Below the pieces are notes generated by a model. That model made no database searches and had not been told where the DNA came from. It saw nothing but the letters and a program-made list of their open reading frames with translations. Positions 5,139 to 31,500 of a stretch of DNA of 41,943 nt are shown here, one piece after another. Source of the stretch: Deltaproteobacteria bacterium (GTDB lineage: Bacteria > Myxococcota > JACPTQ01); the NCBI GenBank assembly GCA_016192705.1, contig JACPTQ010000014.1:79503-121445 (forward strand), read 5' to 3'. Each line of letters begins with the position of its first letter. Position 1 is the first letter of the stretch. A program made the translations under genes and the position numbers.

Positions 5139-5416
5139 GATTCAGTGAGAATCTTGGTGATGCGGGCCATGTCGGCGTCGATGCCGATGCCAGTGAGGAA
5201 GGAGAGCGTTCGGAGTGCGGGTACGCCCGGAACGTCGGCGACTTGCGTGGTTGCGACGATGAGGTCGAAGCCGGGGGCTTTCGCGGCGACCTCGGAGGCT
5301 TTGCATTGGTCGACGCTGACGGCGATTCCGCGGGCGTGAAGCAGCTCTTCGAGTTTTTTGGCGACGACGGTCGATGTGGCGATGCCGGTTCCGCAGGCGA
5401 CGAGGATCTTTTTCAT
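5135..5416 (-). CDS. PTS galactitol-type EIIB component
   Basis: A 93-residue protein beginning MKKILVACGTGIATSTVVAKK. Cys8, in the CGTGIATST loop, is the expected phospho-acceptor of GatB/SgcB-type IIB proteins, and the length fits. It takes phosphate from EIIA and passes it to sugar bound by EIIC. The chosen ATG (5416) overlaps the TGA of the HPr-EI gene as ATGA. The frame stays open upstream, but that extension has no IIB character. The 3' end overlaps the start of the glycosidase-like gene. Confidence 0.92.
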   Translation of the reverse strand: MKKILVACGTGIATSTVVAKKLEELLHARGIAVSVDQCKASEVAAKAPGFDLIVATTQVADVPGVPALRTLSFLTGIGIDADMARITKILTES

Positions 5417-7080
5417 TTCGACTCGAGAGTGCGCGCGACATCGGGGAAGCGCAAGGGCGAGACGGAGAGGGCGTCGACGCCGAGCGACAAGAAATAATCG
5501 ATCGCGGCTGGGAGCGTCGCGGCCTCGCCGCAAATCGAGACTTCGCGATGGAAGCTCTTCGCGGCGGTTACGATCGCTGCGATCGCGTGCTTTACGTTGG
5601 GGTCGAGGACGTCGTCTGGCGTGAGGGTGTCGCGCGAGCGGCCCGTGAGCGATGCGGTCAAGTCGTTTGTGCCGATCGAGATGAACGCGGCGCGTGCTGC
5701 GATCGCGGAAGCAGCGTGGGCGCCGGCGGCCGATTCGATCATGGCGCCGATGGAGAGATCGGTAATGGCAAGATCCAAGTCGTTCGTTGACGCAACGAAC
5801 GGAACGAGTATCCGAACCCGGTCGCGCGGAAGCGCCGCGAGGGCGTTGAGCTGCGACGCGAGGACGTCTGGAAAGTGGCGAAGGCGCGCAATTCCGCGGG
5901 GTTCAGCGTCGCCGGGCAAGAACGCGACGATCTTGTCGCCGCCCGCGTCGAAGAGGCGAAAGGTAACGAGTTGCTCGCCGGACGAACAGAGCAGCTCGTT
6001 GTACACCGCGGCTTGCTCGTCGACGCTCGGCGCATGTCGATGTGACGCGAAAAGGAGCTCGGTGCGAACGAGGCCGATCCCGTCGGCGCCGAGGGCGAGC
6101 GCTTGCGCGGCTTCGGCAACCGACGCGACGTTGGCGCGAAGGGCGATCGGTCGGCGCGTTGGAAGATCGCCGATAACCGACGGCGTCGAGTCCTCCGAGA
6201 CATCGATCCATTCGTCATCGCGAAACGCGTGGAACGCGGTGTCGCTTACAACTTGGACGGGAAGTGCGACGGCGCGCGCGAGTATCACCGCATGGGCGAG
6301 CGGCGAAAGCGCGGTGGTCACAAAGCCGACGATGCCGCGCGCTCGGGCGTCCGCGACGGTCGCGGCGCCGAGGTGGCGCGTAACGAGAACCCACGGGCCC
6401 GGCGGCTCGGGCAACGAGGTGTCGCTGCGGTCGAGCGCCTCGAGCAGACGTTCCGCGATCTCCCGGACGTCAGCGGACTTGGCCTGGGTTCGCTCGTTTG
6501 CGGTCGCGGCGAGGCGCGCGGTGATCTCGTCGGCTGCGCGCACAATCGCTTCATCCATTCCTTGGCCGGCGCCCAACTGCGTTCGCACCGCGTCCGCGAG
6601 TCCACCTTCACCGGTGAGCAGGGCTTCCTGCGCCGCGAAAATCCCAGCGATGTCGATGTTGGTCGATTGTGCGAGAGCGGCGGCTCGTTTTCGCAACTCT
6701 TTGCGCACGTGATCGATCGCTGCGTCGATGTCTTGTTTTGGCGCGCGTCTCGGCGAGACCACACGGCGTGCGATAAAGGCGCGGCCCGTTGTGGAAGCGG
6801 GTGCGGATGCGGCTGCGGATGCGGGAGCGGGAGCGGTCAAGAGTGTGGCCAGCGCCGACGCGGCTGCGTCTTGGTCGGGACCCTCGATTTCGAGTATGAC
6901 GTTTGCGCCCGCGGGAACACCGAGCACCAGAATCTCTACGATCGCTTTTCCGTTAGCGGAGAGTTCGCCGAATCGTACCGTTACAGACGATTGAAACGAC
7001 TGCGCCGCGCGTACAAACGCATCCGCGGGTCGTGCGTGAAGCCCCGCATCCTTAGTCAGCGCAACATCAACTCGCTTCAT
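5413..7080 (-). CDS. HPr-Enzyme I fusion, PEP-protein phosphotransferase
   Basis: A 555-residue fusion. Residues 1-85 are HPr, with phospho-acceptor His15 in DAGLHARPA. Residues about 86-103 are an Ala/Pro/Ser linker encoded by a hexanucleotide repeat. Residues about 104-555 are Enzyme I: the phospho-His (about 263) is in SPLAHAVILAR, the PEP domain has GLVRTELLF and RLFDAGGDKIV, then MIES, SIGTNDLT and the catalytic Cys in SICGEAA. EI uses PEP to phosphorylate itself and then HPr. The EI part is about 450 residues, against about 570 in E. coli PtsI, with shortening mainly in the PEP-binding barrel, but the residues I can align are kept. It overlaps EIIC by 14 bases and EIIB by 4 and lies between them in one operon. 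Confidence 0.92.
   Translation of the reverse strand: MKRVDVALTKDAGLHARPADAFVRAAQSFQSSVTVRFGELSANGKAIVEILVLGVPAGANVILEIEGPDQDAAASALATLLTAPAPASAAASAPASTTGRAFIARRVVSPRRAPKQDIDAAIDHVRKELRKRAAALAQSTNIDIAGIFAAQEALLTGEGGLADAVRTQLGAGQGMDEAIVRAADEITARLAATANERTQAKSADVREIAERLLEALDRSDTSLPEPPGPWVLVTRHLGAATVADARARGIVGFVTTALSPLAHAVILARAVALPVQVVSDTAFHAFRDDEWIDVSEDSTPSVIGDLPTRRPIALRANVASVAEAAQALALGADGIGLVRTELLFASHRHAPSVDEQAAVYNELLCSSGEQLVTFRLFDAGGDKIVAFLPGDAEPRGIARLRHFPDVLASQLNALAALPRDRVRILVPFVASTNDLDLAITDLSIGAMIESAAGAHAASAIAARAAFISIGTNDLTASLTGRSRDTLTPDDVLDPNVKHAIAAIVTAAKSFHREVSICGEAATLPAAIDYFLSLGVDALSVSPLRFPDVARTLESK
6791..6836 (+). repeat. G-rich hexanucleotide array 2
   Basis: GCGGNTGCGGGA-type units, G-rich on the plus strand. 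On the coding (minus) strand they encode the Ala/Pro/Ser linker that joins the HPr and EI domains of the fusion protein. Confidence 0.75.
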
Positions 7081-8479
7081 GGACGCGCTTTACGTCGTGT
7101 CGCACCCACCACCACGACGCCGCAAAAACGATCGCCGAGCCGAGTGCGATCCAAAACTGCGATTTCGTCGGGTCAAAGAGTCGCAAGATGATCCACGGCA
7201 CGACGTGGCTTCCGAGCGCGATCCCCGACCACGCCGGGAAACTCGCCGCCTCCGCGACACCCGCGCCGGCAGCCGGATCCCAGCCCGCGGTTTTCGCAAC
7301 GGTCGTTGTGAGGTCGGCGAGGTCACTACCGATGTAGAGGATGGCGACGACGACGAGCGTCGAATTGAGGAGGCCGCGGACGAGATTCCCGCGTGCCGCT
7401 GCGACCGCCCAGATGATGTAGAAGGGAAGCGCCGCGAGATCGCCGAATGGGAGCATGCGGTTGCCGGGCAAGAGCACCGCGAGAAAGAGCGCGATGGGGA
7501 TGAGAATCAGCGCGACCGCCATGCCGGCTGGGTGGCCGATGACGACAGCGGCGTCGAGACCGACGTAGATATTTTCGCCCGGGAAGCGACGTCGAATGAA
7601 GTCGCGCGCGCCTTCGGCGATGGGGATGAGTCCCTCCATGAGGATGGCGACCATTTTCGGCAAGATGAAGAGGACGGCCGAGGTTGTGACGGCGACGCTG
7701 AGGAGATTCTTGATGTAGGTGCCCGCGCTGCCGCCCTTCGCGAGCGCGCCGTACCCGCCGAGTGCGCCGATGGCGAGGCCGAGCACGGCGCCGATGACGA
7801 GCGGTTCGCCGATGAGGCCGAGTCGCTTTCGCACGGTCTCGGGTGAAACGTCGAGTCGGGCGAGGCCTGGGACGCGCGCCCAGACGCGTTCGAGGGCGTA
7901 CATGAGCGGCGCCCAGTTGACCGTCTCCGTGTGCGGGAGCGAAATGCCGGGCAGGCCGAAGTGCTTTTCGACGGCGGGCGCGGTCCAGTCGGCGAGCTTG
8001 AAGATGATGACGGCGGTGAGGAGCGTTGCGGCAAGCGCGATCCAAAAGCTTTGGAACGCCGCGTAGACGAGCGCGCCGGTGTAAAGGAAGTGCCAGTAGT
8101 TCCAGATGTCGATGTCCATGGTGCGCGTCGTGCGCGTCGCGAGCATGATGATGTTGAGGACGATGATGCACGGGAAAAGGAGAAAGGCGATCGGGTAGGC
8201 GAACGAGGCTGAGGCGCCGACCGGCCAGCCGACATCGAGGACGTCGAGCCCCGTGCCGAGGACTTGGGAAAACGCTTTGGCTTGCGGGCCGACGGTTGTG
8301 ATGAGAAGGCCGATGATGAGTTGAACGCCGACGAAGCCGATGCCGACGGTGAGCCCGGCGCGAAAGGCGCGCGCGAAACCTTGGCGGAGCGTGAGGCCGA
8401 ACGCGAGGATGACGAACGGCATGAGGACCGGCGCGCCGAGACCGAGGATGTAGTTGAAGACCTGTTTGAGTTCGTTCAC
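7067..8479 (-). CDS. PTS galactitol-type EIIC permease
   Basis: A 470-residue polytopic inner-membrane protein of the GatC family. It begins MNELKQVFNYILGLGAPVLM and has about ten hydrophobic segments. A family-typical central region (PFVILAFGLTLRQGFARAFRAG, then GFVGVQLIIGLL) and a TMDIDIWNYWHFLYTGAL segment support the call. It binds and translocates the sugar, which is phosphorylated by EIIB. Family homology does not fix the substrate. The start is GTG 8479, whose bases overlap the EIIA stop (GTGA), behind AAGGGG. No polyol or tagatose-pathway enzyme lies alongside it. Confidence 0.92.
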   Translation of the reverse strand: MNELKQVFNYILGLGAPVLMPFVILAFGLTLRQGFARAFRAGLTVGIGFVGVQLIIGLLITTVGPQAKAFSQVLGTGLDVLDVGWPVGASASFAYPIAFLLFPCIIVLNIIMLATRTTRTMDIDIWNYWHFLYTGALVYAAFQSFWIALAATLLTAVIIFKLADWTAPAVEKHFGLPGISLPHTETVNWAPLMYALERVWARVPGLARLDVSPETVRKRLGLIGEPLVIGAVLGLAIGALGGYGALAKGGSAGTYIKNLLSVAVTTSAVLFILPKMVAILMEGLIPIAEGARDFIRRRFPGENIYVGLDAAVVIGHPAGMAVALILIPIALFLAVLLPGNRMLPFGDLAALPFYIIWAVAAARGNLVRGLLNSTLVVVAILYIGSDLADLTTTVAKTAGWDPAAGAGVAEAASFPAWSGIALGSHVVPWIILRLFDPTKSQFWIALGSAIVFAASWWWVRHDVKRVHEAS

Positions 8480-8907
8480 GCGATCGACCCCTTTCGAATA
8501 AATTCCTCGGCGCGGGCGCGAAGCTCGGTGGCGTCGCGGGCCGTCTGAAGCGATGCGAGAAGCGTCACAAGCGCCGCTTGCGCTTCCTCTCGCGTTTTAA
8601 GGGCGAGCAAGAAAACGGCGTTTACCGCAAGCGTGATGTCGGGGTTTCCCATCTGCCGAAACGACACGGGCGGCTCGGCGAGCGCGACGGCATCCGCGGG
8701 CGACAGCACGTGATCACCATCGGCATGCGGAACTGCGATCGAGCCCGCAGCGAGTGGCAAACCCGTTGGTGACACCGCCTCGCGCGCAACGACCGCGTCG
8801 GCGTACGCATGCGTTACCTCCCCGCGCCGCGCAAGCTCGCCCGCCAATCGCCGAATTGCATCATCCGCCGATGCGACCGAAATCGCGCCGACGCCTAGAA
8901 TCATCAT
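8476..8907 (-). CDS. PTS EIIA component (fructose/galactitol type)
   Basis: A 143-residue EIIA of the PTS_EIIA_2 fold. The phospho-acceptor His (about 62) is in GSIAVPHAD. The later segment AVNAVFLLALKTREEAQAALVTLL matches the usual F-L-A core. It transfers phosphate from HPr to EIIB. The start is one of two adjacent ATGs (8907 or 8904), behind AGGGGACAGCG, which overlaps the stop codon of the upstream lipoprotein gene. It is the first PTS gene of the operon. Confidence 0.92.
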   Translation of the reverse strand: MMILGVGAISVASADDAIRRLAGELARRGEVTHAYADAVVAREAVSPTGLPLAAGSIAVPHADGDHVLSPADAVALAEPPVSFRQMGNPDITLAVNAVFLLALKTREEAQAALVTLLASLQTARDATELRARAEEFIRKGSIA

Positions 8908-9444: not shown

Positions 9445-9523
9445 TGTTCACCTCCGGTTCCCGTGGTTACTCTTCAACCGCTCTTGACGCAAGTCGCTCG
9501 CACCGGTTCCACTCGGTTTGACG

Positions 9524-10609
9524 ATGCCCGAATCGAAACCGGCCGCTTATCGAATCCCCTCGCTTCCCGGCTCGCCGTTGTGGATGGTCACGAAGGAGCC
9601 GCAGCTCAACGAATTTGTGCGCTATCTCGACGAAAAGCGACTCGCCATCGAACACTTTCCGCTTGGGCCGCACGAACTTGTTTTTTCGCGCGCGCGCGTC
9701 GACGAGGTTCGCGTCGAGTTTGCTCGCATGATCCGTCGCGGTGAAAGTAAGCTCCATCGGCTTTGCTCACTCCTGTGCGACGCGTTTTTCCCGGAGCGAT
9801 ACGAAATCGAAAGCGTCGTCATCGCCGAAGTTCCGTCGCGCGGCGAGCGTTTCGTGTTGTCGCAGCCGCTCACGCGCGATGAGCTCTCGCAGTTCACTGA
9901 CATCGACCTCGGGAATCGGCAGATCCAAAAAATCCGGTTCGTCGACGCCGCTGGGCTCGAGCAGCCGCGGCTCGTTGCGAACTTCGTCGAGTATCAGCCG
10001 CTCGAGATGGGCGATCACGGCATCTATAAGATCGGCAGCCGCATCAAGGCCGAGGAGGAAATCTGGAATAAAGTCGTCGATTCGATTTTCGATATCGACC
10101 GCCTCGTGAAGCGCGACAAGAAACTGCGCAAACTCGGGCGATATGTGAAGGACATCTTTGGGCTCAAGATTGTCGTCGGCACCGCGCGCGGGGTTCAGCG
10201 GATTCATCAGCTGCTTCACGAGATGCGGTGGACCCGTGCGCAGCTCATGGCGCATGGGATTGGAGGCGACGCGGCGAATGAGAGCCTGTTGTTCGTGGAA
10301 GTGAAAGACTATCTCGGCACGAGCGAGCAAAAGCGATCCGGCTGGCAAGCGATTAAGTCGGTTGTACGTTGGTGGGGCGACACGTTTGAGATTCAGGTGC
10401 AGCCGCTGCAGAACTACATGAAGGAGCGCGAGCGCGTCACGAAAGAGAGCCACGCCTTTTTCAAAACGCGGCGCGAGGCGATTCGCGATGAAGTTGCCGC
10501 GTCATTCCCGTTGTTCGGCTTTTATCGCGACGTGCTCACGTGGCTTTTTCGCTCGCCCGACGAACCACCGCCGCGCTTTCCGGGCGTCTCCGTCAAGTTG
10601 TTGCCATAG
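9524..10609 (+). CDS. divergent RelA/SpoT-type nucleotidyltransferase-like protein
   Basis: A soluble protein of about 361 residues. Residues about 165-310 carry the order of landmarks seen in RelA/SpoT synthetase domains. First is a basic segment like the 'R-x-K...S-I...K' loop (SRIKAEEEIWNKVV). Next is VKDIFGLKIVV, with the Asp expected to bind metal. Then comes VKDYLGTSEQKRSGWQAIKSVV, matching 'KDYI..PK.NGYQSLH' with Trp for Tyr. Last is FEIQVQP, with the conserved Glu. The first 160 residues are unassigned and no HD hydrolase domain is visible. The chemistry could be (p)ppGpp synthesis or another pyrophosphate or nucleotide transfer. TTG 9518 also opens the frame, but ATG 9524 is preferred; no clear ribosome-binding site precedes it. 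It is monocistronic and converges with the next gene after a 7-base gap. Confidence 0.6.
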   Translation: MPESKPAAYRIPSLPGSPLWMVTKEPQLNEFVRYLDEKRLAIEHFPLGPHELVFSRARVDEVRVEFARMIRRGESKLHRLCSLLCDAFFPERYEIESVVIAEVPSRGERFVLSQPLTRDELSQFTDIDLGNRQIQKIRFVDAAGLEQPRLVANFVEYQPLEMGDHGIYKIGSRIKAEEEIWNKVVDSIFDIDRLVKRDKKLRKLGRYVKDIFGLKIVVGTARGVQRIHQLLHEMRWTRAQLMAHGIGGDAANESLLFVEVKDYLGTSEQKRSGWQAIKSVVRWWGDTFEIQVQPLQNYMKERERVTKESHAFFKTRREAIRDEVAASFPLFGFYRDVLTWLFRSPDEPPPRFPGVSVKLLP

Positions 10610-16861: not shown

Positions 16862-19309
16862 TCATCGAACGTCGAACGTGATGGCGGGGCTCGTTCGCGC
16901 GCCGATTTTCGCGACGACGGTGTGGCGACCGCGGGCGAGGGGCCACGTCGCGGTGAACGGCGGACCGACGGGCGGAAGGGTGCGGCCATCGACGATGAAC
17001 TCGACCGCGCGATGGCCAGCGATTCGCATTGACGACGCTGTGGTCGAGTCGATGCGCGCGCGCAAGGGTATGGATTGGGCGTCGGGCGCGAGGTCCGGAA
17101 GCCACGCGAAGCGATCGCCGTCGAGTGGGAAGGTGATCGCGATGTCGGCGTCGGCTGTCGCGCTTTGGGCGCTTGGCGGTGGGCACGTCGGTGACTCTCG
17201 AACGGGAGCGATTGGTCGGCCGGCGGCATACGCCCAATCGAGGTATTCGGGCGGGTACGATTCAAACGTGCGCAGCGCGGCGTTGGAACCGCGGCAGCGC
17301 GAGGCGGCGAGGAGCCCACTTTGCGAGTCGATGTGAACGCGATGGTGAAAGGCGCATGGGGCTTGGGGTGCGCGACCTTTGGGCACATGCTCCGTGAGCG
17401 CGCCTGGGCATGCGGGGCCGACGCGGGCGCCCGAGAGCGGACAGACGGCAATCGTCTCAACGCCCGTTGGGTCGGCGAACGGCGGCGGCGGCTCCTTGGC
17501 GTAAAGGGCGAGCATGACGTCGCGCCAAATCGGTGCCGCACCGATGATGCCCGAAGCGCCGCCGAGTGGGCGTGCATCGAAGTCGCCGACCCAGACGCCG
17601 ACTGTGTGCGCCGCGGTGTAGCCGACGGTCCAGTTGTCGCGGAAGTTCGTTGACGTCCCGGTCTTGACCGCCGCACGAAACGGCAGGTCGAGCGCACTCG
17701 ATTCGCCAAAGCTCGCCTTTCGCGCGCTCCGATCCGAAAGAATATTCGTGATCAGCGCAGCCGATGTTTCTGAAAGTACCCTCCCTCTTACTCCCCTATC
17801 TCTGTGTCTCTGTGGTGCATGTTCTTCTTCTCTTATCATTCTCACATCAACCGCAATCCCGCCCCGCGCGAGCGCCGCGTAAGCCGCCGTCAACTCAACG
17901 AGCGTCACTTCGCCGTTTCCAAGCACGGCGCCGAGCCCCACCTTTTCCGCATCGACATCGAGGCTTGCGACGCCAAGCGACCGCAAAAACGAGAGGAACG
18001 CCGGGACCCCGACGCGCTCAACGGCGCGCACCGCTGGGATGTTGTACGAATTGGCGAGCGCCTCGCGAACGCGCACCGGCCCGTGGAACTTCGTGTCGAA
18101 GTTTTGCGGCGCATACTCTTGTCCGCCCGCGACGTAGCGCACCTCGAGATCCGCGAGGAGACTCGCCGGCGTCAGCGTCCCGCGTTCAAATGCAAGCGCA
18201 TAAACAAACGGCTTCAGAGTTGACCCCGGCTGTCGCCGCGCGCGCGCCCCATCGACCTGGCCCTTGTTAACAACGCTCTTGAAATCGGCCGACCCGACGT
18301 ACGACAAGACATCGCCCGTCGCGTTCTCAAGGACGACGACGGCCGCGTTCGTGATGCTGTAACCGCGCAGATCGCGCACGGTGCGCCTGACGATCTCCTC
18401 AACCTCGCCCTGCAATCGCCCATCGAGCGTGGTTGCGACGAGCGTGTTTTTGACGCCAAGGCGCAGCGCTTCGTCTGCGACGCGAGCGACAAAGTGTGGA
18501 GCGTGAAACGGACGCTCGAGCGGCGCAATCGCAAGCGGCTCCGCGGTCGCGGCGGTTCGGTCGGCCGACGTAATTGCGCCCGTTTCTTCCATGAGCCGGA
18601 GGATCGTTTGCTGCCGCGCAATCGCCCGCTCTTTGAAGCGCGTTGGGCTGTATCCAGACGGCGCTCGCGGCAAACCCGCGAGGAGAGCCGCTTCGCCGAG
18701 CGACAACAGCGCGGGTGGCTTTCCAAAGTACGCACGCGCAGCGGCGTCGACGCCATAAAGCTGGTTTCCATAGGGGGCGCGGTTCAAATACTCCTCGAGG
18801 ATTCGCGCCTTTGAAGCTTGGCGCTCGAGGCGCATGGCGAGGATCGCTTCGTCGAGCTTCGTTGAAAGCGTTCGTGGGCGCGGCCGAACGAGTTTCACGA
18901 GCTGCTGCGTAATCGTAGACGCACCTTGGCGGCCACCCGAGCCGACGAGGTTTGCGAGCGCTGCGCGGGCGATGGCGGCAACGTCGATTCCGAAGTGGTT
19001 GTAGAACCGACGATCCTCGGCGGCGATCGTTGCGCGGACAAGGTGTGGCGAGTTGTCGGCGAGCGCGACCCAATGCGCACGGCGCGCCTCGCTTGACGGC
19101 GACTCTCGAAGAAGGACCCCGCGCCGATCCGTGAAGCGCTGCGACTCGAACCCGTCGCGCGAAAGCAGCGCTGACGGGAAATCGCCCGCGGCGACGACGA
19201 TCGCGGTAACGCCCGCGACAAGTGCGACGAACACAGCTACGCCCCCCGCGGACCAAGCCGCTCGTCGCAGCCACTTTCGCCGTCTCGTCATCGTCGTTCT
19301 CGCATTCAC
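16862..19309 (-). CDS. pbpC: penicillin-binding protein 1C
   Basis: An 815-residue bifunctional membrane-anchored PBP. The N-terminal membrane anchor is at about 18-42. The glycosyltransferase domain has catalytic Glu (about 97) in EDRRFYNHFG and the motif GASTITQQLVKL. The transpeptidase has Ser-X-X-Lys in GSTLKPF (about 363), SYN in NSYNIPAV and KTGTS (about 551). A PBP1C-type C-terminal domain follows. It polymerises and crosslinks peptidoglycan. It lies 4 bases after the A2M gene, the usual pairing. The start is GTG 19309, with ATG six codons on. Residues about 488-511 are an odd insertion rich in Arg, Glu and His, encoded by AGA, ATA and GAA codons and matching the dispersed repeat (copy B). 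The frame is intact, so the protein is probably functional. Confidence 0.95.
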   Translation of the reverse strand: MNARTTMTRRRKWLRRAAWSAGGVAVFVALVAGVTAIVVAAGDFPSALLSRDGFESQRFTDRRGVLLRESPSSEARRAHWVALADNSPHLVRATIAAEDRRFYNHFGIDVAAIARAALANLVGSGGRQGASTITQQLVKLVRPRPRTLSTKLDEAILAMRLERQASKARILEEYLNRAPYGNQLYGVDAAARAYFGKPPALLSLGEAALLAGLPRAPSGYSPTRFKERAIARQQTILRLMEETGAITSADRTAATAEPLAIAPLERPFHAPHFVARVADEALRLGVKNTLVATTLDGRLQGEVEEIVRRTVRDLRGYSITNAAVVVLENATGDVLSYVGSADFKSVVNKGQVDGARARRQPGSTLKPFVYALAFERGTLTPASLLADLEVRYVAGGQEYAPQNFDTKFHGPVRVREALANSYNIPAVRAVERVGVPAFLSFLRSLGVASLDVDAEKVGLGAVLGNGEVTLVELTAAYAALARGGIAVDVRMIREEEHAPQRHRDRGVRGRVLSETSAALITNILSDRSARKASFGESSALDLPFRAAVKTGTSTNFRDNWTVGYTAAHTVGVWVGDFDARPLGGASGIIGAAPIWRDVMLALYAKEPPPPFADPTGVETIAVCPLSGARVGPACPGALTEHVPKGRAPQAPCAFHHRVHIDSQSGLLAASRCRGSNAALRTFESYPPEYLDWAYAAGRPIAPVRESPTCPPPSAQSATADADIAITFPLDGDRFAWLPDLAPDAQSIPLRARIDSTTASSMRIAGHRAVEFIVDGRTLPPVGPPFTATWPLARGRHTVVAKIGARTSPAITFDVR
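17791..17848. repeat. dispersed repeat, copy B, inside pbpC
   Basis: CTCTGTGTCTCTGTGGT at 17800-17816 is identical to copy A at 272-288. It adds about 20 residues in frame (minus strand) between the GGIAVDV and RVLSETSAAL segments of PbpC, in a loop well away from the catalytic motifs. Codons AGA and ATA, rare in the rest of this GC-rich gene, cluster here. Confidence 0.75.
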
Positions 19310-19313
19310 CGCA

Positions 19314-22300
19314 TCACTCCGGCGCCTTCACCACGATCATCTGTGCGCGGCCGCGGCCATTCACGCGCGGGTCGTACATCTCCTCCGCGTGCGTCGCCGG
19401 CACCACGTACAGCCCCGGAACCGTCGCGCGCGCGAGGTAGCGGTAGCGGTGGATACCCGCATACATGTATGGCGCGAAGAGCACGACGCGGTCAGCGCGG
19501 TTTTCGCGGTGCGTGAAGCGCGTCCACCGTGAGGCGCTGTCCTTGTCGGAGCGACCTCCTCGGCGTGTCGTCGCCAAGTTGAAGTTGACCGCCTCAGCGC
19601 CGGCCGGGAGCGGATCGTCGACGACGACATCTCTTCGCACTTTCGGTACGACGATCGTCAAGTTCACGCGCAAAAGCTCACCCGCGTTCACTTCGGGCGC
19701 ACTCGGCGCGAACAGCGCGACGCCTTGACCGGACGTTGGCGACTTATCCCCGAGGCGTTCGATCGTTTTCCAGATCGTGATGCCGTCGTCGCGAACGTGT
19801 TTAGGAGGTTTGTTCGGCGCGAAGCGCAATCGCGCGCGATACCGAACGGCATCGCCGCTCATCGACTTGACGACAAAAGCAAGAGGTTCGCTCATGGCCG
19901 TCGCCGCATCCACGCTCGCTGTGCCGCTCGGCGCGATGATCGCCGCAAACGGCAGCGTCGCTGACCAGAACGGTTTACCGCTCTGCGACGGACCGTCGTG
20001 AATGACCACACTGCCGAGCTTCGCTGAAACGTTCAAGCGCGCCGATTTTTCCTTCCCCTTAAAATATTCCGACAACCCGAGCAGCGCGTACGCGTTCTCC
20101 TGCGTGTGAAGCCAATGCCCGTCTTCGCGCGCATCGAGGAGCCCGCGCGCAACCTTCGCCGTGATCGCGTGGTCGGGCGCAATCGCCGTCAGCGCAGACA
20201 AGACGATCGCGTTTGTGCGGACATCGGTGTGCCGAAGCCGCCACATCTCCTTCGTCGGGATGTCGTCGAAACGGACGCCGTCGTCGACGGTGCGCGCCGC
20301 TTTCGCGATGTCGGCGATCAGCGCTTTCACGCGCGCGTCGTCACGTCGCGCAACGTGCATCGCGTGCGCGAGAAACGCCTTTGCAAAAACCGGGAGGTCG
20401 CCGCGACGATCGTAAAGGTACGATGCGATCGACGCGTCCGGCTTGCCGAGCGCCGCAAGCACATAGGCGACCTGCGTCTTTTCAGCGAGCTCCGCGGCCG
20501 GCGAGTTGAGCCCCGCCGTTTTCATTTTCTCTTTGAGCGACGCCGCAAGATACGCCGCGCCCGAATCGCGCACGCTTTTTTCGACGTCGTACCCTTGACG
20601 CTCTGCTTCGGCGAGCGTCCAGAGAACCCACGCCGAAAGCCATGGCTCGGGCTTTGAACCATAGCCGTCGTACTCGTCGCCGCCAGGTCCCCACAAGCTA
20701 AAACCGCCGTTCTCGTGCTGAAACTTGTAAAGTCGCGACACGCCGTGCTTCACCATCTTCGGAATCTCTTTCACCCGTGCGAGATTCAGCCCCTCCGTCA
20801 AATCGCGCAGGCCGAGGAGCGGCGCGAGTGTGCTCGTCGTCTGCTCGGCGCACCCATACGGGTAGTGGATGAGGTACGCCAGGCCATCGGAGAGTTCGAC
20901 GCGCTCGGACGCCGAGAACGACACCGTGAGCTCGCCGACATCGCGTCTGGCGCCCTCGGGCAACGCCACCATCTGTTTCGCGGTGCTGTCGGCGATGCCG
21001 CCCCACGCAATGGTCTCGACGCTCGCCGGAATCTTTATTTCGCGCGTCACCTCCACGCCGTCGGTGTGGTCGCCCATCTTGCCGTGGAATCGCAAAACCG
21101 CGTTGCCGGGTGCTCCGGCGATAAGCGGGAAGCGAACGGTGGCGCCGCGCCCCGCAGCAAGCTCAACTTCGCGAGACGCTGCGCCCGCGACGCGGACGCC
21201 CGTGCCGGTGAATCCAACGACGGCCTTCTCCGCGCCGTTCGTGTGGTTGTGGACGACGACGCCCGCCTCAAACCGGTCGCCTGCGCGCACGAAGCGCGGC
21301 ACCGACGGCATCATCACGAGTGGCTTCGCAACACGGAATTTCGCATCGCCGCTTCCAAACTCCGCGCCCTTTGTGGCCGCGACGGCCATCACGCGAAACG
21401 TCGTCAAGTTGTCGGGCAGCTTGAATTTCACTTCGGCGTTCCCATCGCCGTCGGTCAAAACGCTCGGGTTGAAATACGTCGTCGCCTCGAACTTCGATCG
21501 CAGCCCCGATTTTCCGCCGCCGCCGCCCGCCGGTTCGTCGCCCTTCTCTTGGTACGCGCGCCGCCGCATAGTTCGATAGCGGTTGTCACTCGTCACGACC
21601 GCAAGCCCCCGCGTCGCATAAAGCGCTTTCAACGGGTCGGGTGTTTTGTACGCCGTGAGCGACAAGACGCCCTCATCGACAACGTAAACCGTCATCTCGG
21701 TCGGCACGCCGCCGCCCCGCGCATCGGTTGTGCGAAGCCGCACGGTCACTTCGTCGCCCGGGCGTTTCTCCTCGCTGTCGGGCGTCACGGCGACTTTGAC
21801 GCGCTTCTCTTTCGGATCGACGCGAATCGTTGCGTACCCGATGCGGAACATCGGCCGCCGCGGGTCATCGCCCGTCGGCGTAAAGGCGCCCGGCGCGCGA
21901 CCGCGTACGAGCGCGACCGACACGAACGCGTTCGGCAAAAACTCTTCGGTCACGCGAAGCCGAATCGCTGGCGCCGTGCCTTCGAGGAGTTTCTGCTCTT
22001 GATAAATGACGCCCTCGCGCTCGACCGTGATGAGCGCATGCGCCCGCGGGAACGGCGACTTCACGATGAGCCGCGCCGTGTCGCCAACGGCGTACGCCTG
22101 CTTGTCGGCGATGAGGCCAATCTTCACTTCGTCGCTTGCCGCCCACGCCGTTGTCGTCGGCCCGAGCACGTAAAACCCAAGGCTCGTCTTGACTTCGCGC
22201 CCCTTCGCATCTTTCCCGCGCGCGACAAAAAAGTAGCTTCCGCCTTCGCGTGGCTTGAAGTCGCAGCGCGCAAGTCCGTCGCTGGACGTGACCCGACACG

Positions 22301-25115
22301 ACTTCACGAGCTTGTCGACGACGCGCGACCCGTAGCTCCCAGTGCCGCCCTCGTTCTCACGCCGATACGACGTCCACGTGCGCTTATAGATGTCGCCTGA
22401 CAATGCGACTCCCGCGAGTCGCGACCCGTCGGGCTTCACCGCCGCGAGGTCCGCGCGAAACGTTTCGGTCGACTCAAGGAACGTCCACTCCGCGAGCACC
22501 CCAACATAGAAATCGGCCGGATGCGCCGTCACGACCGTGCGCGCCGAAATCTCCTCCTGTGTGAGTCCCGTCGCCGTCGCCTCGACCACGAAGCTCGCGG
22601 GTTTTAAGCCCCCTTTCCCCATCGCGCCGACCGTGAAATCGCCCGACATCGCGCCCGCCTCATCGGTCACTTCGTTTCGCGACAACACAACCGTCGAGCT
22701 TGATTCGACCTGCCCGCCCGTCTCCGACTCCATCCACCACGCGGTCTCCTCGCCAAAATAAAACCCGCTGTGCTTGGGCGGCGTAAACGACGCGCGCCGC
22801 CGCGTGATCGTGACTTCCATCTTCGCGCCGCGCATCGGTGCGCCAAACAGGTAGCGCGCCTCCGCGTTCCACTTAAACGTGTCGCCCGCGAAAACGTCGC
22901 GCTTGTCGGTCGTCGCCTTCACGCTGAAGTCGGGCGTCTTAAACTCCTCGACGCGAAACGACTCCGTGACCGTCCCCTTTGGCGCCGCATCGCCAATCTC
23001 CGCCTTGATTTCGTAGCGTCCGAGCGTCGCCGATTCGGGCAGCGCGACGTCAAACGCAAACGACCCAAACGCCGACAGCTTCGCCGTGTGCTCCGCGACG
23101 TCGTTGCCGCGTTCGTCCCTAATGGCGAGTTTCACGGCCGCGCCATGAGGCGTCTCCATCGTCTTCAGCCCTGCGCGCCGCGCGATCCCCTTGAGCCGCA
23201 CCTTTTCGCCCGGCCGATAGACGCCGCGGTCGGTGAAAATGATCCCAACGGTTTGGTCCGACACCGTCTGGCCGCCTTCGCCGTCTTCGCCCTCGCCGAT
23301 CCCCGTCGCGTCCGGAATATCGAAACTCGACGGCATCATCATCCATTGGTTTTCGTTTGTTGCGACGTACGCGAGGTCTTTGTCTTTTGCCGCGAACACC
23401 CAAAGTTTTTGAGCTTGCACGCGGCCTTGTCCCTTGGGCGAAATCGCGTCCTTCGGCGCAAAAGCAAGTCCATGCGCGTCGGTCGTGCCTTCCCAAAGCG
23501 CCTTGTTCGCGCCGCTTCGAACGACAACGCGTGCGCCTTCAACCGGCACTCCGCTCGAAAGCGACGTGACCCACGCGGTGACGCCAAACGGCGACCGTTT
23601 CGTCGTGACCCCGAGGTCGGTGACGTTGACGAGGAGACGATCGTTCGTCGACGAGTTGGTCGCTTTTCCATACCCTGTCTGGATTTCAACGACGCCGCCG
23701 CCGCCTGCTGGAAGTTGCTTGGCCGGGTCGATGAGTTTTACGTAGCGCGAACCTTCCCACTTTTTGAAAAGGAAATGGTGCGATGGCTTCTGCCCCGCGG
23801 TGACCGCGGTGCTCGTGCCGCTCGTGAGGCGCGCGACGATTTCGTTTTCTGGAATCGGATTCACATACGTAAACGCGCCCGGGACGCTCTGGTAAACGAC
23901 CGGTACGCCGGTTAACCCCTTGCGCTCGACGAGCGACCCCTCGACCGCGAAATGAACCGCCTCGCGGTATCCACGTGTTTCAAACGTCGCCTTGGCCGGC
24001 GCTTTGATCTTCTCGCCGTCGGTTGATTTGAGCGTGCCCGCGATCGCGACGCTGTATTTCGTCTTTGGGCGAAAAGCGCCGCGAAACGTCACCTCGCGAT
24101 CCGGCTCGGTGACCGTCGGCTCCGTGAGGCGCGCCGCGGGCGTGACTTTAAGCGCTTTCCAAACGTCGCGCGGATTCACGCGCTCCGTGAATTTCACCGT
24201 GAGCCCTTCGGACGGCGTGCAGTCGGCCTCGCACCCGAGCGTGTCGAATTCAAACGCTTCGACAACCTTAAAGGTCGTGCGCTTTGACTCCTCATAGATG
24301 GGAACGCCGCTCGCACTCACATGGCGTTCGACGATTTCGGCTTCGACGGTTGCGCCGACCGGGTACGGCTTTTCGGGGCGCACAAAGAGGCGACGGTAAT
24401 ACGACGCGTCGATCTTGAACGGCACATCGACGGCTTCAGCGGCGCCCGGTGCTGTCGCGCGCAACTTCACGCGCCCTTTGAGGTCGCTCGCATTGACGTG
24501 CGCCGAAAAGAGAAGGTCGATGGGTGTGGTGCGGAGCACGCGGACGGCGCCTTCGGTGGGCTTCAATCCGTGAACGATAATCGGTTTCACTTTGGGCGCT
24601 GCCGTAGGCCCAATCGCCACGACTTTGGGTCGCGCGACGCGCCCCGAAACCCGCCCGGGCACTTCGAACGCCCACGCCCGCGCATCGGCGAGCTTTTGTC
24701 CCGACAGCGACGTCAAGTCGTCGACGAGTCGCGCCGTGAATCGCCCCGACGCGAACCTCCCACCTTTCGGGACAAACGCGAACGCGTGTCGCCCGAGCCA
24801 GCGCACATCGCCCGCGATCGCGTGCGCGCTTTCACCGGCACCGCTCATCACGACGATGGGCGCGCGCTCGACGGGGACGGCCTCCGCCTTTAGGAGCGGC
24901 TGGTTGAACACAACGACCACTTCAGTGACGGCGCCGTCGTGAACGTTCGCATCGAATGCGACAACGCGGAGTGGTTCCGCCGCCTTGCCCGACTGCGAAC
25001 TGCGTTTCGCACCTTTGGGGTCGCCGATGATGCTCGACGAGTCGGCGCACGCGAGCGCAAGAAAGTGCGCGAGAGCCAGAGAATACGCGGGTTTTAGGAA
25101 CAAGCTGTGTTTCAT
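19314..25115 (-). CDS. bacterial alpha-2-macroglobulin lipoprotein
   Basis: A 1933-residue YfhM-type alpha-2-macroglobulin. The lipoprotein signal ends in ALAHFLALAC. A series of macroglobulin (MG) beta domains spans the first 1100 residues. The thioester motif CAEQ lies in YPYGCAEQT at about 1421, within the alpha/alpha thioester domain. A C-terminal macroglobulin domain follows. The family traps attacking proteases by a thioester-linked conformational change and is thought to work with PbpC, whose gene follows by 4 bases. ATG 25115 has GGAG six bases upstream. The length is somewhat above the 1650 residues of E. coli YfhM. Confidence 0.95.
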   Translation of the reverse strand: MKHSLFLKPAYSLALAHFLALACADSSSIIGDPKGAKRSSQSGKAAEPLRVVAFDANVHDGAVTEVVVVFNQPLLKAEAVPVERAPIVVMSGAGESAHAIAGDVRWLGRHAFAFVPKGGRFASGRFTARLVDDLTSLSGQKLADARAWAFEVPGRVSGRVARPKVVAIGPTAAPKVKPIIVHGLKPTEGAVRVLRTTPIDLLFSAHVNASDLKGRVKLRATAPGAAEAVDVPFKIDASYYRRLFVRPEKPYPVGATVEAEIVERHVSASGVPIYEESKRTTFKVVEAFEFDTLGCEADCTPSEGLTVKFTERVNPRDVWKALKVTPAARLTEPTVTEPDREVTFRGAFRPKTKYSVAIAGTLKSTDGEKIKAPAKATFETRGYREAVHFAVEGSLVERKGLTGVPVVYQSVPGAFTYVNPIPENEIVARLTSGTSTAVTAGQKPSHHFLFKKWEGSRYVKLIDPAKQLPAGGGGVVEIQTGYGKATNSSTNDRLLVNVTDLGVTTKRSPFGVTAWVTSLSSGVPVEGARVVVRSGANKALWEGTTDAHGLAFAPKDAISPKGQGRVQAQKLWVFAAKDKDLAYVATNENQWMMMPSSFDIPDATGIGEGEDGEGGQTVSDQTVGIIFTDRGVYRPGEKVRLKGIARRAGLKTMETPHGAAVKLAIRDERGNDVAEHTAKLSAFGSFAFDVALPESATLGRYEIKAEIGDAAPKGTVTESFRVEEFKTPDFSVKATTDKRDVFAGDTFKWNAEARYLFGAPMRGAKMEVTITRRRASFTPPKHSGFYFGEETAWWMESETGGQVESSSTVVLSRNEVTDEAGAMSGDFTVGAMGKGGLKPASFVVEATATGLTQEEISARTVVTAHPADFYVGVLAEWTFLESTETFRADLAAVKPDGSRLAGVALSGDIYKRTWTSYRRENEGGTGSYGSRVVDKLVKSCRVTSSDGLARCDFKPREGGSYFFVARGKDAKGREVKTSLGFYVLGPTTTAWAASDEVKIGLIADKQAYAVGDTARLIVKSPFPRAHALITVEREGVIYQEQKLLEGTAPAIRLRVTEEFLPNAFVSVALVRGRAPGAFTPTGDDPRRPMFRIGYATIRVDPKEKRVKVAVTPDSEEKRPGDEVTVRLRTTDARGGGVPTEMTVYVVDEGVLSLTAYKTPDPLKALYATRGLAVVTSDNRYRTMRRRAYQEKGDEPAGGGGGKSGLRSKFEATTYFNPSVLTDGDGNAEVKFKLPDNLTTFRVMAVAATKGAEFGSGDAKFRVAKPLVMMPSVPRFVRAGDRFEAGVVVHNHTNGAEKAVVGFTGTGVRVAGAASREVELAAGRGATVRFPLIAGAPGNAVLRFHGKMGDHTDGVEVTREIKIPASVETIAWGGIADSTAKQMVALPEGARRDVGELTVSFSASERVELSDGLAYLIHYPYGCAEQTTSTLAPLLGLRDLTEGLNLARVKEIPKMVKHGVSRLYKFQHENGGFSLWGPGGDEYDGYGSKPEPWLSAWVLWTLAEAERQGYDVEKSVRDSGAAYLAASLKEKMKTAGLNSPAAELAEKTQVAYVLAALGKPDASIASYLYDRRGDLPVFAKAFLAHAMHVARRDDARVKALIADIAKAARTVDDGVRFDDIPTKEMWRLRHTDVRTNAIVLSALTAIAPDHAITAKVARGLLDAREDGHWLHTQENAYALLGLSEYFKGKEKSARLNVSAKLGSVVIHDGPSQSGKPFWSATLPFAAIIAPSGTASVDAATAMSEPLAFVVKSMSGDAVRYRARLRFAPNKPPKHVRDDGITIWKTIERLGDKSPTSGQGVALFAPSAPEVNAGELLRVNLTIVVPKVRRDVVVDDPLPAGAEAVNFNLATTRRGGRSDKDSASRWTRFTHRENRADRVVLFAPYMYAGIHRYRYLARATVPGLYVVPATHAEEMYDPRVNGRGRAQMIVVKAPE

Positions 25116-28511: not shown

Positions 28512-31500
28512 TTAGCGCGTGGGCGACGTTCGTTGTCGTTTAATCGAGTCGCTCCACGCGACGAGGTCACGCTCGATCGCGCGCGACCTTGCGAGCACCG
28601 CCGCCTCTGGGTTGCCATTTGCAAACGCGAACCAAGAATCGACCGTGTGCCCGTGTCGCGCGAGATGTCGATTCGCAAACGCGCGTGCGTACTCGGGCGC
28701 CTTTTGTTCAATTTCGCCGATCGTTCGCAACACTTGAATCTCAGCAAGCGCCGCGTCGCGCCGAATCTTCTCGTCAAACGATGGCCCCTCGCACGCCAGC
28801 GCGCGGTTAATCCACTGGTCCTTTTGCGGCATCGCCGCGAACTTCATCTCGCCCTGGCTTGGGCAGGCGCTCGGAAAAAGCGCTGCGCAAACGCCGTACG
28901 CGAGTTTCAAGACTTTGTTCTGCGCGAGCTTGAAGATCGGCGCCGCGACCTTGCGAAGCATCTTCGAGAGCAGCCGCTCGACGAGGCCGGTGAGCGCGTT
29001 CACAGCGGCGTCGGCGAGCTCATCCATGATCGCTTGGTACGCGATCTCCGCGGCCGCCGCGAGCGCCGACCCCGCACCAAACGGAATCGCGGCGAGCGCC
29101 GACGTGAGCGCCGTGATCGCCACATCGAGCGGTTTCCGAACAATCGAAAACACGAGATTCACGAGTTTTCGCGCGAACGGCTCGACGATCGACGCGACGC
29201 GCTCCCCAATCATCTTGATCAGGTCCTCGAGCATCTTGTTCAAGATTTCGCCCGACCCCTCGATGACCTTCTTTTTCGCCGCGATCTCGCGCACCGCATC
29301 GAACGCCTTTTCGTGGTCCTTGAGAAGTTTTTTCGCGTCGTTCAACTTGTCTTGCGCCGCCTTCTTTTTCTCCTCAAAGCTTTTCTTCGCCGCCGCATCG
29401 GCCGCTGCCCACGCGACTTCCGCTTTATGGAAATCGTCGAGCGCCTTCGCGACGACTTCATCCCGCGTTTTTCGGAGCGTCCCCTCGGCGTCTTCAATTC
29501 CCTTCTTCAGCTTCTCCCACTGCGCCTTCGCGACGTCGACGAGTTGCTTCACCCATTTATCAAGGAATTCGCCCGACAAGTGCCCAAGGTCCGCCACGCG
29601 CTCAAGCGCATCGCCGAATTTTCCAAGCCCCATCTTCGCGATCGCCCCCAAGAGCCCGCCGAGTTGACTTGCCATTTCGTCCTTGCCGCCAGACAGCTGG
29701 TTCTCTCCCTGTCGCTGCGCGGCTTCCTTCTTTTCGCTCTCCTTCGCCGTCGCGCTCGCTGGCGGCGCCTTCGCGACCCAATCCCACGGCTTCTCGTCCG
29801 CGTAAGCAAAACCGGCGCACTTCATCCAATGTGCCGTGCTCTTCGGGTTTTTGTCCTTCGGCAAAACCCACTTTGTCTTACCTTCTTTGTCCTTGGTCGC
29901 TTTCCCGCCCGCGACAACCATCGCGGGGATATCCATCGCATAAGGTGAGTTCGACTCGTCGTCGGGAATGACCGCGAGCGATGGTCGCCCACCGTAAGCC
30001 GGATGCCCCGACGTTCCGCCGTAACACCAATCGAACTTCGCGAGCTGCTTCTTCGTGTTCTCAATTTTCGTGGCGCTTTGGCCAACCATCTTAAATGCGC
30101 GCAATCGCCTTTCAATCGCGCCGACGACGAGAAGGGGAGACGACGCGCACGCCATTTTGCCGACCTTCGACTTGTACCAGGTCTGCTCGACGCAATAGAT
30201 GTTTCCCTTGAACCACCACGGGATCGCCGCTTCGCGCGCTCGCCGATGCACTTCGAGTCGCGTCATGAGCGGTGCACGTTCGGCCGCGTCAAATACACTG
30301 TTCGCATATTTTTCCGCGGTCCGAAGGAGAATCGTTCGCGCGCCGTCGAGCACCTCGAACAGGTGACTCACGCGCAGAATGATCGACAGCGCCTCGGGTT
30401 GAATTCGAAGCTGCCCTTCGTCGGTCGCCTCGTTTCGAAACGCCTCGAACCAGCGCCGGTCGGGCGTTCGCTCGCCGCTCGTCACTTCTTTGATGAGGTC
30501 GTTGAGCGACTTCGCGGCGTTCTTGTCGACCGCTTTCTCGTTGCCGTCCGGTGTGAACGTAATCTGCACGCACGGCCCCTTCTTACAATCGGACCCGAGC
30601 GGGACGTAGCTGTGTTTCGTGTCCTCCTTGATGTTGAGGCGCTTCAGCTCTCTCACGATTGGGATGTCCGACTCGATGAGCGCGTAGCGCATCGTCGTGC
30701 GATGGCCGAGCGTGTGCCCCGTTTTCGTGGCCCATCGCACGAGGTCGTCCATATCCTTTTTAACGTCGCGCTCAAAGTCCTTCTTCGCTGTGGTGACGGC
30801 GTTATTCACGGCCGGCCACCAAATCTCGGGTGGCGCCCAGACTCCACCGGGCAAATAGACAGCGGCTTGACCGATGAGCGCGGCCCGCACCTTGACGTAC
30901 TCGGGGTTTGGCTTTTGGACCCAATGTTTCCAGAACCACGACCCTTCTTTTTTTCGGATCTCAGGCGGCAACGATCTCATCGTTCTAAGTCCACGCCAAA
31001 GCACGTGGAACTCGTCGCCGCCGTGGAGCCAGTCCTCGTAATGGGCCTTGTGGTCTTTCGCCGCTTCGCGCACCGCATCGGTCCAGCTCCACCGCCGCAA
31101 GATGTCTTCGCTCTTCTCGGTTTCGCCCCACTGAAAAAGGCGCCGGTAACACTGGAGCGACGAGCGGTCGCCCTTCGGGCTCTGAAACCCGTCTGATCTC
31201 GACCCGCCCACGCACACAGCGGGCGCATCTTTAATCATGTGACGCCCCGCGAGCCCGATGTCGATCCCGCACATCCAAAACGGCTTGCCCGAAAAGAATT
31301 CGCGCGCCTTAAAGAGCGCGCAGTAATAACCGCGCTTGAACGCGCCGCGTTTGCAGACGCCGCTCCCGCACCCTTCCGGCACTTCGTGTTTTCGCATCTC
31401 GAACCAGTGCGCGATCGTCTCTTTCGTGAAGCCGCACATCAGCTTCTTGTTGTGGCCGTCGAAGCGACAAAACTCCTTCGCGCCAAAAATCCCCTCGTCG

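What the first reader, a model, noticed from the sequence alone, without database searches (positions are those of the whole stretch)
9524..10609. Divergent RelA/SpoT-fold protein without a hydrolase domain
Motif order (R-x-K loop, D-I-F-G-L-K, GWQAIKS, FEIQV) parallels RelA/SpoT synthetase domains, with the two acidic metal/catalytic residues kept but the substrate-stacking Tyr replaced by Trp and the YQSLH His replaced by Lys. The unassigned 160-residue N-terminal half is unlike known small alarmone synthetases. It could be a new nucleotide-second-messenger enzyme or a toxin.
Basis: partly seen in the sequence, partly recalled or inferred. Interest (0 to 1): 0.65.

Follow-up and report, generated by a model that had tools for sequence, protein, structure and literature searches.

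The report
New divergent RelA/SpoT synthetase family
This gene encodes a member of a previously unnamed bacterial enzyme family that has the machinery used to make starvation-signal nucleotides such as ppGpp; its substrate-recognising residues are consistently replaced, so it probably makes a different, still unidentified product.

Summary
Window 9524-10609 (+) encodes a 361-residue protein; residues 165-327 are a divergent RelA/SpoT (RSH) synthetase domain with no hydrolase domain. Evidence: Pfam RelA_SpoT (2e-5; 66 of 70 relatives match, best 5.9e-8), and an AlphaFold2 model (pLDDT 85) whose six Foldseek matches with E <= 0.001 are all SpoT/RelSeq. The gene belongs to a strongly conserved, single-copy, chromosomal family (74 loci, about nine phyla, dN/dS 0.02-0.09). 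It has no conserved neighbour and was not found in plasmid, phage or viral collections. By motif spacing the pyrophosphokinase core is invariant in 70/70 sequences: R173, K175, K183, D210, G213, K261, K270, E289, Q291. The specificity positions are fixed to other residues: acceptor-stacking Tyr to Trp (69/70), SxH to AxK, donor-site Arg to Lys, Ser to Glu/Gln, Arg to Asp. The 150-residue N-terminal domain has no known relative and was found only in this family. Best reading: an active stand-alone cytosolic pyrophosphokinase with altered base specificity, more likely a regulator than a toxin. The substrate is not shown. Co-occurrence with a small hydrolase in one myxobacterial lineage is explained by shared ancestry. 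The family is unnamed in Pfam, NCBIfam, PHROGs and PADLOC: a new variant of a known kind.

The parts
9524..10609 (+). Gene of the divergent RelA/SpoT-fold protein (361 aa, ATG start; an in-frame TTG at 9518 is possible)
   Evidence: homologues over full length; dN/dS 0.02-0.09 between close relatives
9572..10015 (+). N-terminal domain, residues 17-164 (starts SPLWMV); predicted helices plus a beta sheet; no known relative; found only with the synthetase domain
10016..10504 (+). RelA/SpoT-like synthetase (pyrophosphokinase) domain, residues 165-327
   Evidence: Pfam PF04607 residues 173-297; Foldseek to SpoT, RelSeq, SAS1, CapRel, FaRel2
10040..10072 (+). Donor-site motif R173-I-K175-A-E-E-E179-I-W-N-K183 (= RelSeq R241/K243/S247/K251); Ser position is Glu/Gln in all relatives
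10151..10168 (+). Catalytic motif D210-I-F-G213-L-K215 (= RelSeq D264 ... R269); Arg replaced by Lys in 70/70
10304..10357 (+). G-loop / acceptor motif K261-D-Y263 ... K270-R-S-G-W274-Q-A276-I-K278 (= K297, Y299, K304, Y308, S310, H312)
   Evidence: RelSeq residue roles from PMC9143738
10388..10396 (+). Catalytic E289-I-Q291 (= RelSeq E323/Q325, FaRel2 E145/Q147)
   Evidence: PMC11782079
10505..10606 (+). C-terminal helix and strand, residues 328-361 (PLFGFYRDVLTWLF...), conserved in the family, function unknown

Best explanation
It is a stand-alone, cytosolic, catalytically competent pyrophosphokinase of the RelA/SpoT (RSH) superfamily. D210 and E289 bind Mg2+ and activate the acceptor hydroxyl. 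R173, K175, K183 and Q291 hold ATP (donor). K261, Y263 and K270, plus the new K278, hold the 5' phosphates of an acceptor nucleotide whose base stacks on W274. It transfers pyrophosphate from ATP to that acceptor. The acceptor is probably a nucleotide di- or triphosphate, but because SxH is replaced by AxK and Tyr by Trp, its base preference differs from canonical ppGpp synthetases. The conserved N-terminal domain probably regulates activity or binds the triggering ligand. Shown: homology, fold, residue conservation, distribution, absence of conserved partners. Inferred: activity, substrate, regulation.
For: RelA_SpoT profile match in 66/70 members. All six Foldseek matches with E <= 0.001 are SpoT or RelSeq, and ranks 7-20 are SpoT, RelSeq, SAS1, CapRel and FaRel2. 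Profile-profile match to long Rel synthetase domains that aligns D210, K261-D-Y, G-loop, E289 and H310 (E 0.0013, low probability). Spacing identical to RelSeq: 173/175/183 = 241/243/251; 270/274/278/289 = 304/308/312/323. 70/70 invariance of R173, K175, K183, D210, G213, K261, K270, E289, Q291, H310. In RelSeq, Lys297, Tyr299, Lys304 and His312 bind the acceptor diphosphate and Tyr308 stacks the base (PMC9143738). [quoted passage not shown] this family keeps the lysines and adds K278. A real pseudo-synthetase (SpoT of A. baumannii) lost its catalytic residues (PMC9974481); this family has not. Strong purifying selection. No partner, no mobile-element association.
Against: No biochemical data. 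Foldseek TM-scores are low (0.18-0.22 over the query), so the model departs from known structures outside the core. The ATP-triphosphate helix is changed too: Ser to Glu/Gln and Arg to Asp, giving an acidic AEEE stretch, which could mean a different donor or chemistry. The profile-profile probability is only 18%. No genomic partner points to a pathway.
Confidence: 0.55

Rival explanations
1. It makes ordinary (p)ppGpp (or (p)ppApp) as an auxiliary small alarmone synthetase; the Trp and Lys are neutral replacements.
For: Core residues that bind ATP and the acceptor phosphates are kept; aromatic stacking is kept (Trp).
Against: The syn3 SxH motif described as guanosine-recognising, and GxN of the ppApp synthetase Apk2 (PMC12226406), are both absent: AxK in 70/70. 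Nearly all carriers examined already have a canonical long Rel.
Confidence: 0.2
2. It is a toxSAS-like toxin or tRNA pyrophosphokinase that modifies the CCA end, held inactive by its own N-terminal domain as in fused CapRel.
For: Fold neighbours include CapRel and FaRel2; a fused extra domain is present; CapRel also has a fused neutralising domain.
Against: CapRel's regulatory domain is C-terminal and has a YXXY motif; here the extra domain is N-terminal, with no fold relative. Not found on plasmids, phages or viral contigs; single copy, vertically inherited in one myxobacterial family; acceptor-phosphate lysines kept.
Confidence: 0.12
3. Pseudo-enzyme: the RSH fold is kept as a nucleotide-sensing regulator without catalysis.
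For: Several substrate-site residues are replaced in all members (S to E/Q, R to K, R to D, SxH to AxK).
Against: Both catalytic acids and all core basic residues are invariant in 70 sequences spanning about nine phyla, unlike the known pseudo-synthetase.
Confidence: 0.1

Closest known systems
Long RSH enzymes (Rel/RelA/SpoT), synthetase domain, e.g. RelSeq 1VJ7
   Same: Synthetase fold; motif order and spacing; catalytic D264/E323 and R241, K243, K251, K297, Y299, K304, Q325 equivalents
   Different: No HD hydrolase, TGS or ACT domains; Y308 to W, H312 to K, S310 to A, S247 to E/Q, R269 to K, R327 to Q; unrelated N-terminal domain
Small alarmone synthetases RelP/RelQ (SAS1/YjbM, YwaC)
   Same: Stand-alone synthetase without hydrolase domain; Foldseek neighbours
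   Different: Nearly twice as long; different N-terminal domain; noncanonical acceptor motif; SAS and long Rel proteins of the same genomes do not match the family profile at E 0.1
toxSAS: FaRel2, CapRel, PhRel
   Same: Donor-site R64/K66/K74/D90/G93/E145/Q147 equivalents kept; CapRel also has a fused extra domain
   Different: No antitoxin gene found, no YXXY regulatory domain, no mobile context, larger predicted acceptor-phosphate patch, Trp instead of G-loop Tyr
(p)ppApp synthetases Tas1/Apk1, Apk2 and exported alarmone synthetases (EAS)
   Same: RSH synthetase fold; EAS genes also stand alone without immunity genes (PMC12691689)
   Different: No apparent signal peptide or secretion domain; acceptor motif AxK, neither SxH nor GxN

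Membership tests
RelA/SpoT homologue (RSH) superfamily, synthetase domain | Significant match to the RelA_SpoT profile | tested here: met
   Window 25.3 bits as protein (cut-off 27), 27.2 bits on the genomic frame (over cut-off); 66/70 members match, best 5.9e-8; several relatives over the cut-off
RelA/SpoT homologue (RSH) superfamily, synthetase domain | Synthetase fold | tested here: met
   AlphaFold2 pLDDT 84.6, pTM 0.83; ranks 1-20 of the PDB Foldseek list are RSH synthetases
RelA/SpoT homologue (RSH) superfamily, synthetase domain | Catalytic Asp and Glu and donor-site Arg/Lys in register | tested here: met
   D210, E289, R173, K175, K183 invariant with RelSeq spacing within each motif
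Guanosine 3'-pyrophosphokinase ((p)ppGpp synthetase) | G-loop Tyr and SxH acceptor motif | tested here: not met
   W274 in 69/70 (Phe in 1) and A276-x-K278 in 70/70
Guanosine 3'-pyrophosphokinase ((p)ppGpp synthetase) | Synthesis of (p)ppGpp from ATP and GDP/GTP | not testable with these tools
   Needs biochemistry
toxSAS toxin-antitoxin system | Adjacent or fused antitoxin/immunity gene | tested here: not met
   No conserved neighbour in 74 loci; no YXXY-type C-terminal domain; an inhibitory role of the N-terminal domain is not excluded
toxSAS toxin-antitoxin system | Toxicity on expression | not testable with these tools
   Needs an experiment
Long RSH | HD hydrolase domain before the synthetase | tested here: not met
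   No HD_4 match in the protein; the genome's HD_4 hits lie on other contigs

The most novel reading that the evidence does not exclude
A widespread but undescribed nucleotide signalling enzyme. It would use the RelA/SpoT fold with an indole-stacking, lysine-rich acceptor pocket and an acidic donor helix to make a pyrophosphorylated nucleotide other than (p)ppGpp or (p)ppApp, controlled by a previously unknown sensor domain.
Probability: 0.3. Interest if true: 0.8.

Novelty: new variant of a known kind. Interest (0 to 1): 0.52.

Why it matters
RSH enzymes were thought to make ppGpp until relatives were found that make ppApp or modify tRNA. This is another subfamily, conserved across about nine phyla and almost entirely in uncultured bacteria, whose substrate-recognition residues differ in a fixed way from those of both guanosine and adenosine synthetases. 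A single in vitro assay would show whether bacteria have a further alarmone or RNA-modifying pyrophosphokinase. The new N-terminal domain may reveal a new trigger.

Tried and rejected
Toxin-antitoxin or defence module: no conserved neighbour, no PADLOC or PHROG match, nothing on plasmids, phages or viral contigs. Operon with SUF genes: seen only in one lineage (L029/L034-type loci), not elsewhere. Dedicated hydrolase partner: in family f8, 15 of 16 carriers have a second HD_4 protein (orthologous, mostly about 180 aa) against 3 of about 80 non-carriers. On a Rel tree this collapses to shared ancestry (5 independent pairs, same direction in 1.4 on average, p = 1), and most carriers in other phyla lack it, so it is rejected as a demonstrated link. 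A first version of that tree used wrong reading frames for seven rows and was discarded. Single-sequence searches of PDB and genome contigs found nothing; an alignment-based scan was needed to reach the wider family. N-terminal fold search gave no hit at E 0.001. A text search for an earlier description of the family gave nothing relevant, but most subscription papers are not in that library.

Full report
Observation. The ORF at 9524-10609 (+) encodes 361 aa. Pfam RelA_SpoT (PF04607) matches residues 173-297 with E 2e-5, just under the curated cut-off as a protein and 27.2 bits, just over it, in the genomic frame. NCBIfam, PADLOC, PHROGs and PDB sequence searches gave no informative match.

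A family, not an orphan. 20 of 195 genomes of the phylum carry one copy each. An alignment-based scan of 84,980 species genomes returned 74 loci at about 30-55% identity. By submitter titles they are labelled Myxococcota, Acidobacteriota, Chloroflexota, Vulcanimicrobiota/Eremiobacterota, Bdellovibrionota, Bacteroidota, Calditrichota, Melainabacteria and Pseudomonadota; a 'Bifidobacterium' bin is probably mis-binned. Nearly all are metagenome-assembled genomes. The distribution is patchy: apart from the genome used as the centre, none of 200 sampled Chloroflexota genomes has it. dN/dS between close pairs is 0.02-0.09. Within family f8 the carriers fall in one clade of the Rel tree with a few absences, consistent with vertical inheritance. 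It was not found in 72,556 plasmids, 50,697 phage records or the viral-contig collection.

Fold. AlphaFold2 on 70 sequences gave pLDDT 84.6 and pTM 0.83. The six PDB Foldseek matches with E <= 0.001 are all SpoT or RelSeq; ranks 7-20 are further SpoT and RelSeq chains, B. subtilis SAS1, CapRel and FaRel2. TM-scores are low (0.18-0.22 over the query), so the core is shared but the surroundings differ. The best viral-library hits include phage RelA/SpoT proteins. The N-terminal 164 residues, modelled alone, give pLDDT 86.2 but no significant structural relative, and a search of 195 genomes found that domain only in the same 20 carriers.

Active site. Aligned by spacing to RelSeq and FaRel2: R173 = R241/R64, K175 = K243/K66, K183 = K251/K74, D210 = D264/D90, G213 = G93, K261 = K297, Y263 = Y299, K270 = K304, W274 = Y308/Y128, K278 = H312, E289 = E323/E145, Q291 = Q325/Q147. 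The distances 173-175-183 and 270-274-278-289 are identical to RelSeq 241-243-251 and 304-308-312-323. All of these except Y263 (68/70) and W274 (69/70) are invariant in 70 sequences. Profile-profile alignment with long Rel domains gives the same register from D210 onward (E 0.0013, low probability). Residue roles come from PMC9143738 and PMC11782079. RelSeq numbering was laid on by motif spacing and is partly from my own knowledge of the family.

What is changed is also fixed: Tyr to Trp at the acceptor-stacking position; SxH to AxK at the motif described as guanosine-recognising (Apk2, a ppApp synthetase, has GxN: PMC12226406); Arg to Lys at beta2; Ser to Glu/Gln and Arg to Asp along the ATP-triphosphate helix; Arg to Gln after EIQ (69/70). 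The acceptor-phosphate lysines are kept and one is added. [quoted passage not shown] I infer a phosphorylated small-molecule acceptor rather than a tRNA end, with altered base choice. A real pseudo-synthetase, SpoT of A. baumannii, has lost its catalytic residues; this family has not.

Context. No neighbour is conserved across lineages. Nearly all carriers examined also have a canonical long Rel; the exception is one Melainabacteria bin (G199) where the only RelA_SpoT hit is the family member itself. In family f8, 15 of 16 carriers have an extra small HD_4 protein against few non-carriers, but a tree-aware test gives no support for a link beyond common descent.

Conclusion. A new RSH subfamily, most likely an active pyrophosphokinase with noncanonical substrate choice and a new regulatory domain. 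Homology, fold and conservation are shown; activity, substrate and regulation are inferred. The toxin reading is possible but not favoured.

Noticed in passing
window 5413-8907 (-): A PTS set (HPr-enzyme I fusion, EIIC-GAT, EIIA-2) lies about 600 bp from the gene, in the opposite orientation. EIIA-type PTS proteins regulate Rel/SpoT in some bacteria, but no PTS family appears among the commonest neighbours of the relatives, so this is probably coincidence.
   Followed up: partly
L112 976-2043 (-) (same genome, contig C57): A second, unrelated small RelA_SpoT protein (356 aa, 39 bits) directly follows a 432-aa protein with no Pfam hit that looked to me like the end of a BREX/PglX-type methylase; possibly a defence-linked toxSAS.
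   Followed up: no
L153 (G000:C58:12900-14300): A small HD_4 hydrolase (open frame of 324 aa) in the same genome, 57% identical to one in a non-carrier genome; possible small alarmone hydrolase.
   Followed up: partly
L158-L175: An orthologous small HD_4 protein (about 180 aa) in 15 of 16 family-f8 carriers, in G039 and in three non-carriers; co-occurrence not significant after correcting for ancestry.
   Followed up: yes
L037 2899-3936 (+): A contig labelled Bifidobacterium breve (MAG, 66% GC, 4.1 kb) carries a member nested among Acidobacteriota; probably mis-binned.
   Followed up: partly
window 28512-33341 (-): A 1609-aa ORF with no Pfam match at E 0.001.
   Followed up: no
window 16862-25115 (-): Bacterial alpha-2-macroglobulin (1933 aa) next to a penicillin-binding protein with transglycosylase, transpeptidase and BiPBP_C domains; an ordinary pairing.
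   Followed up: no
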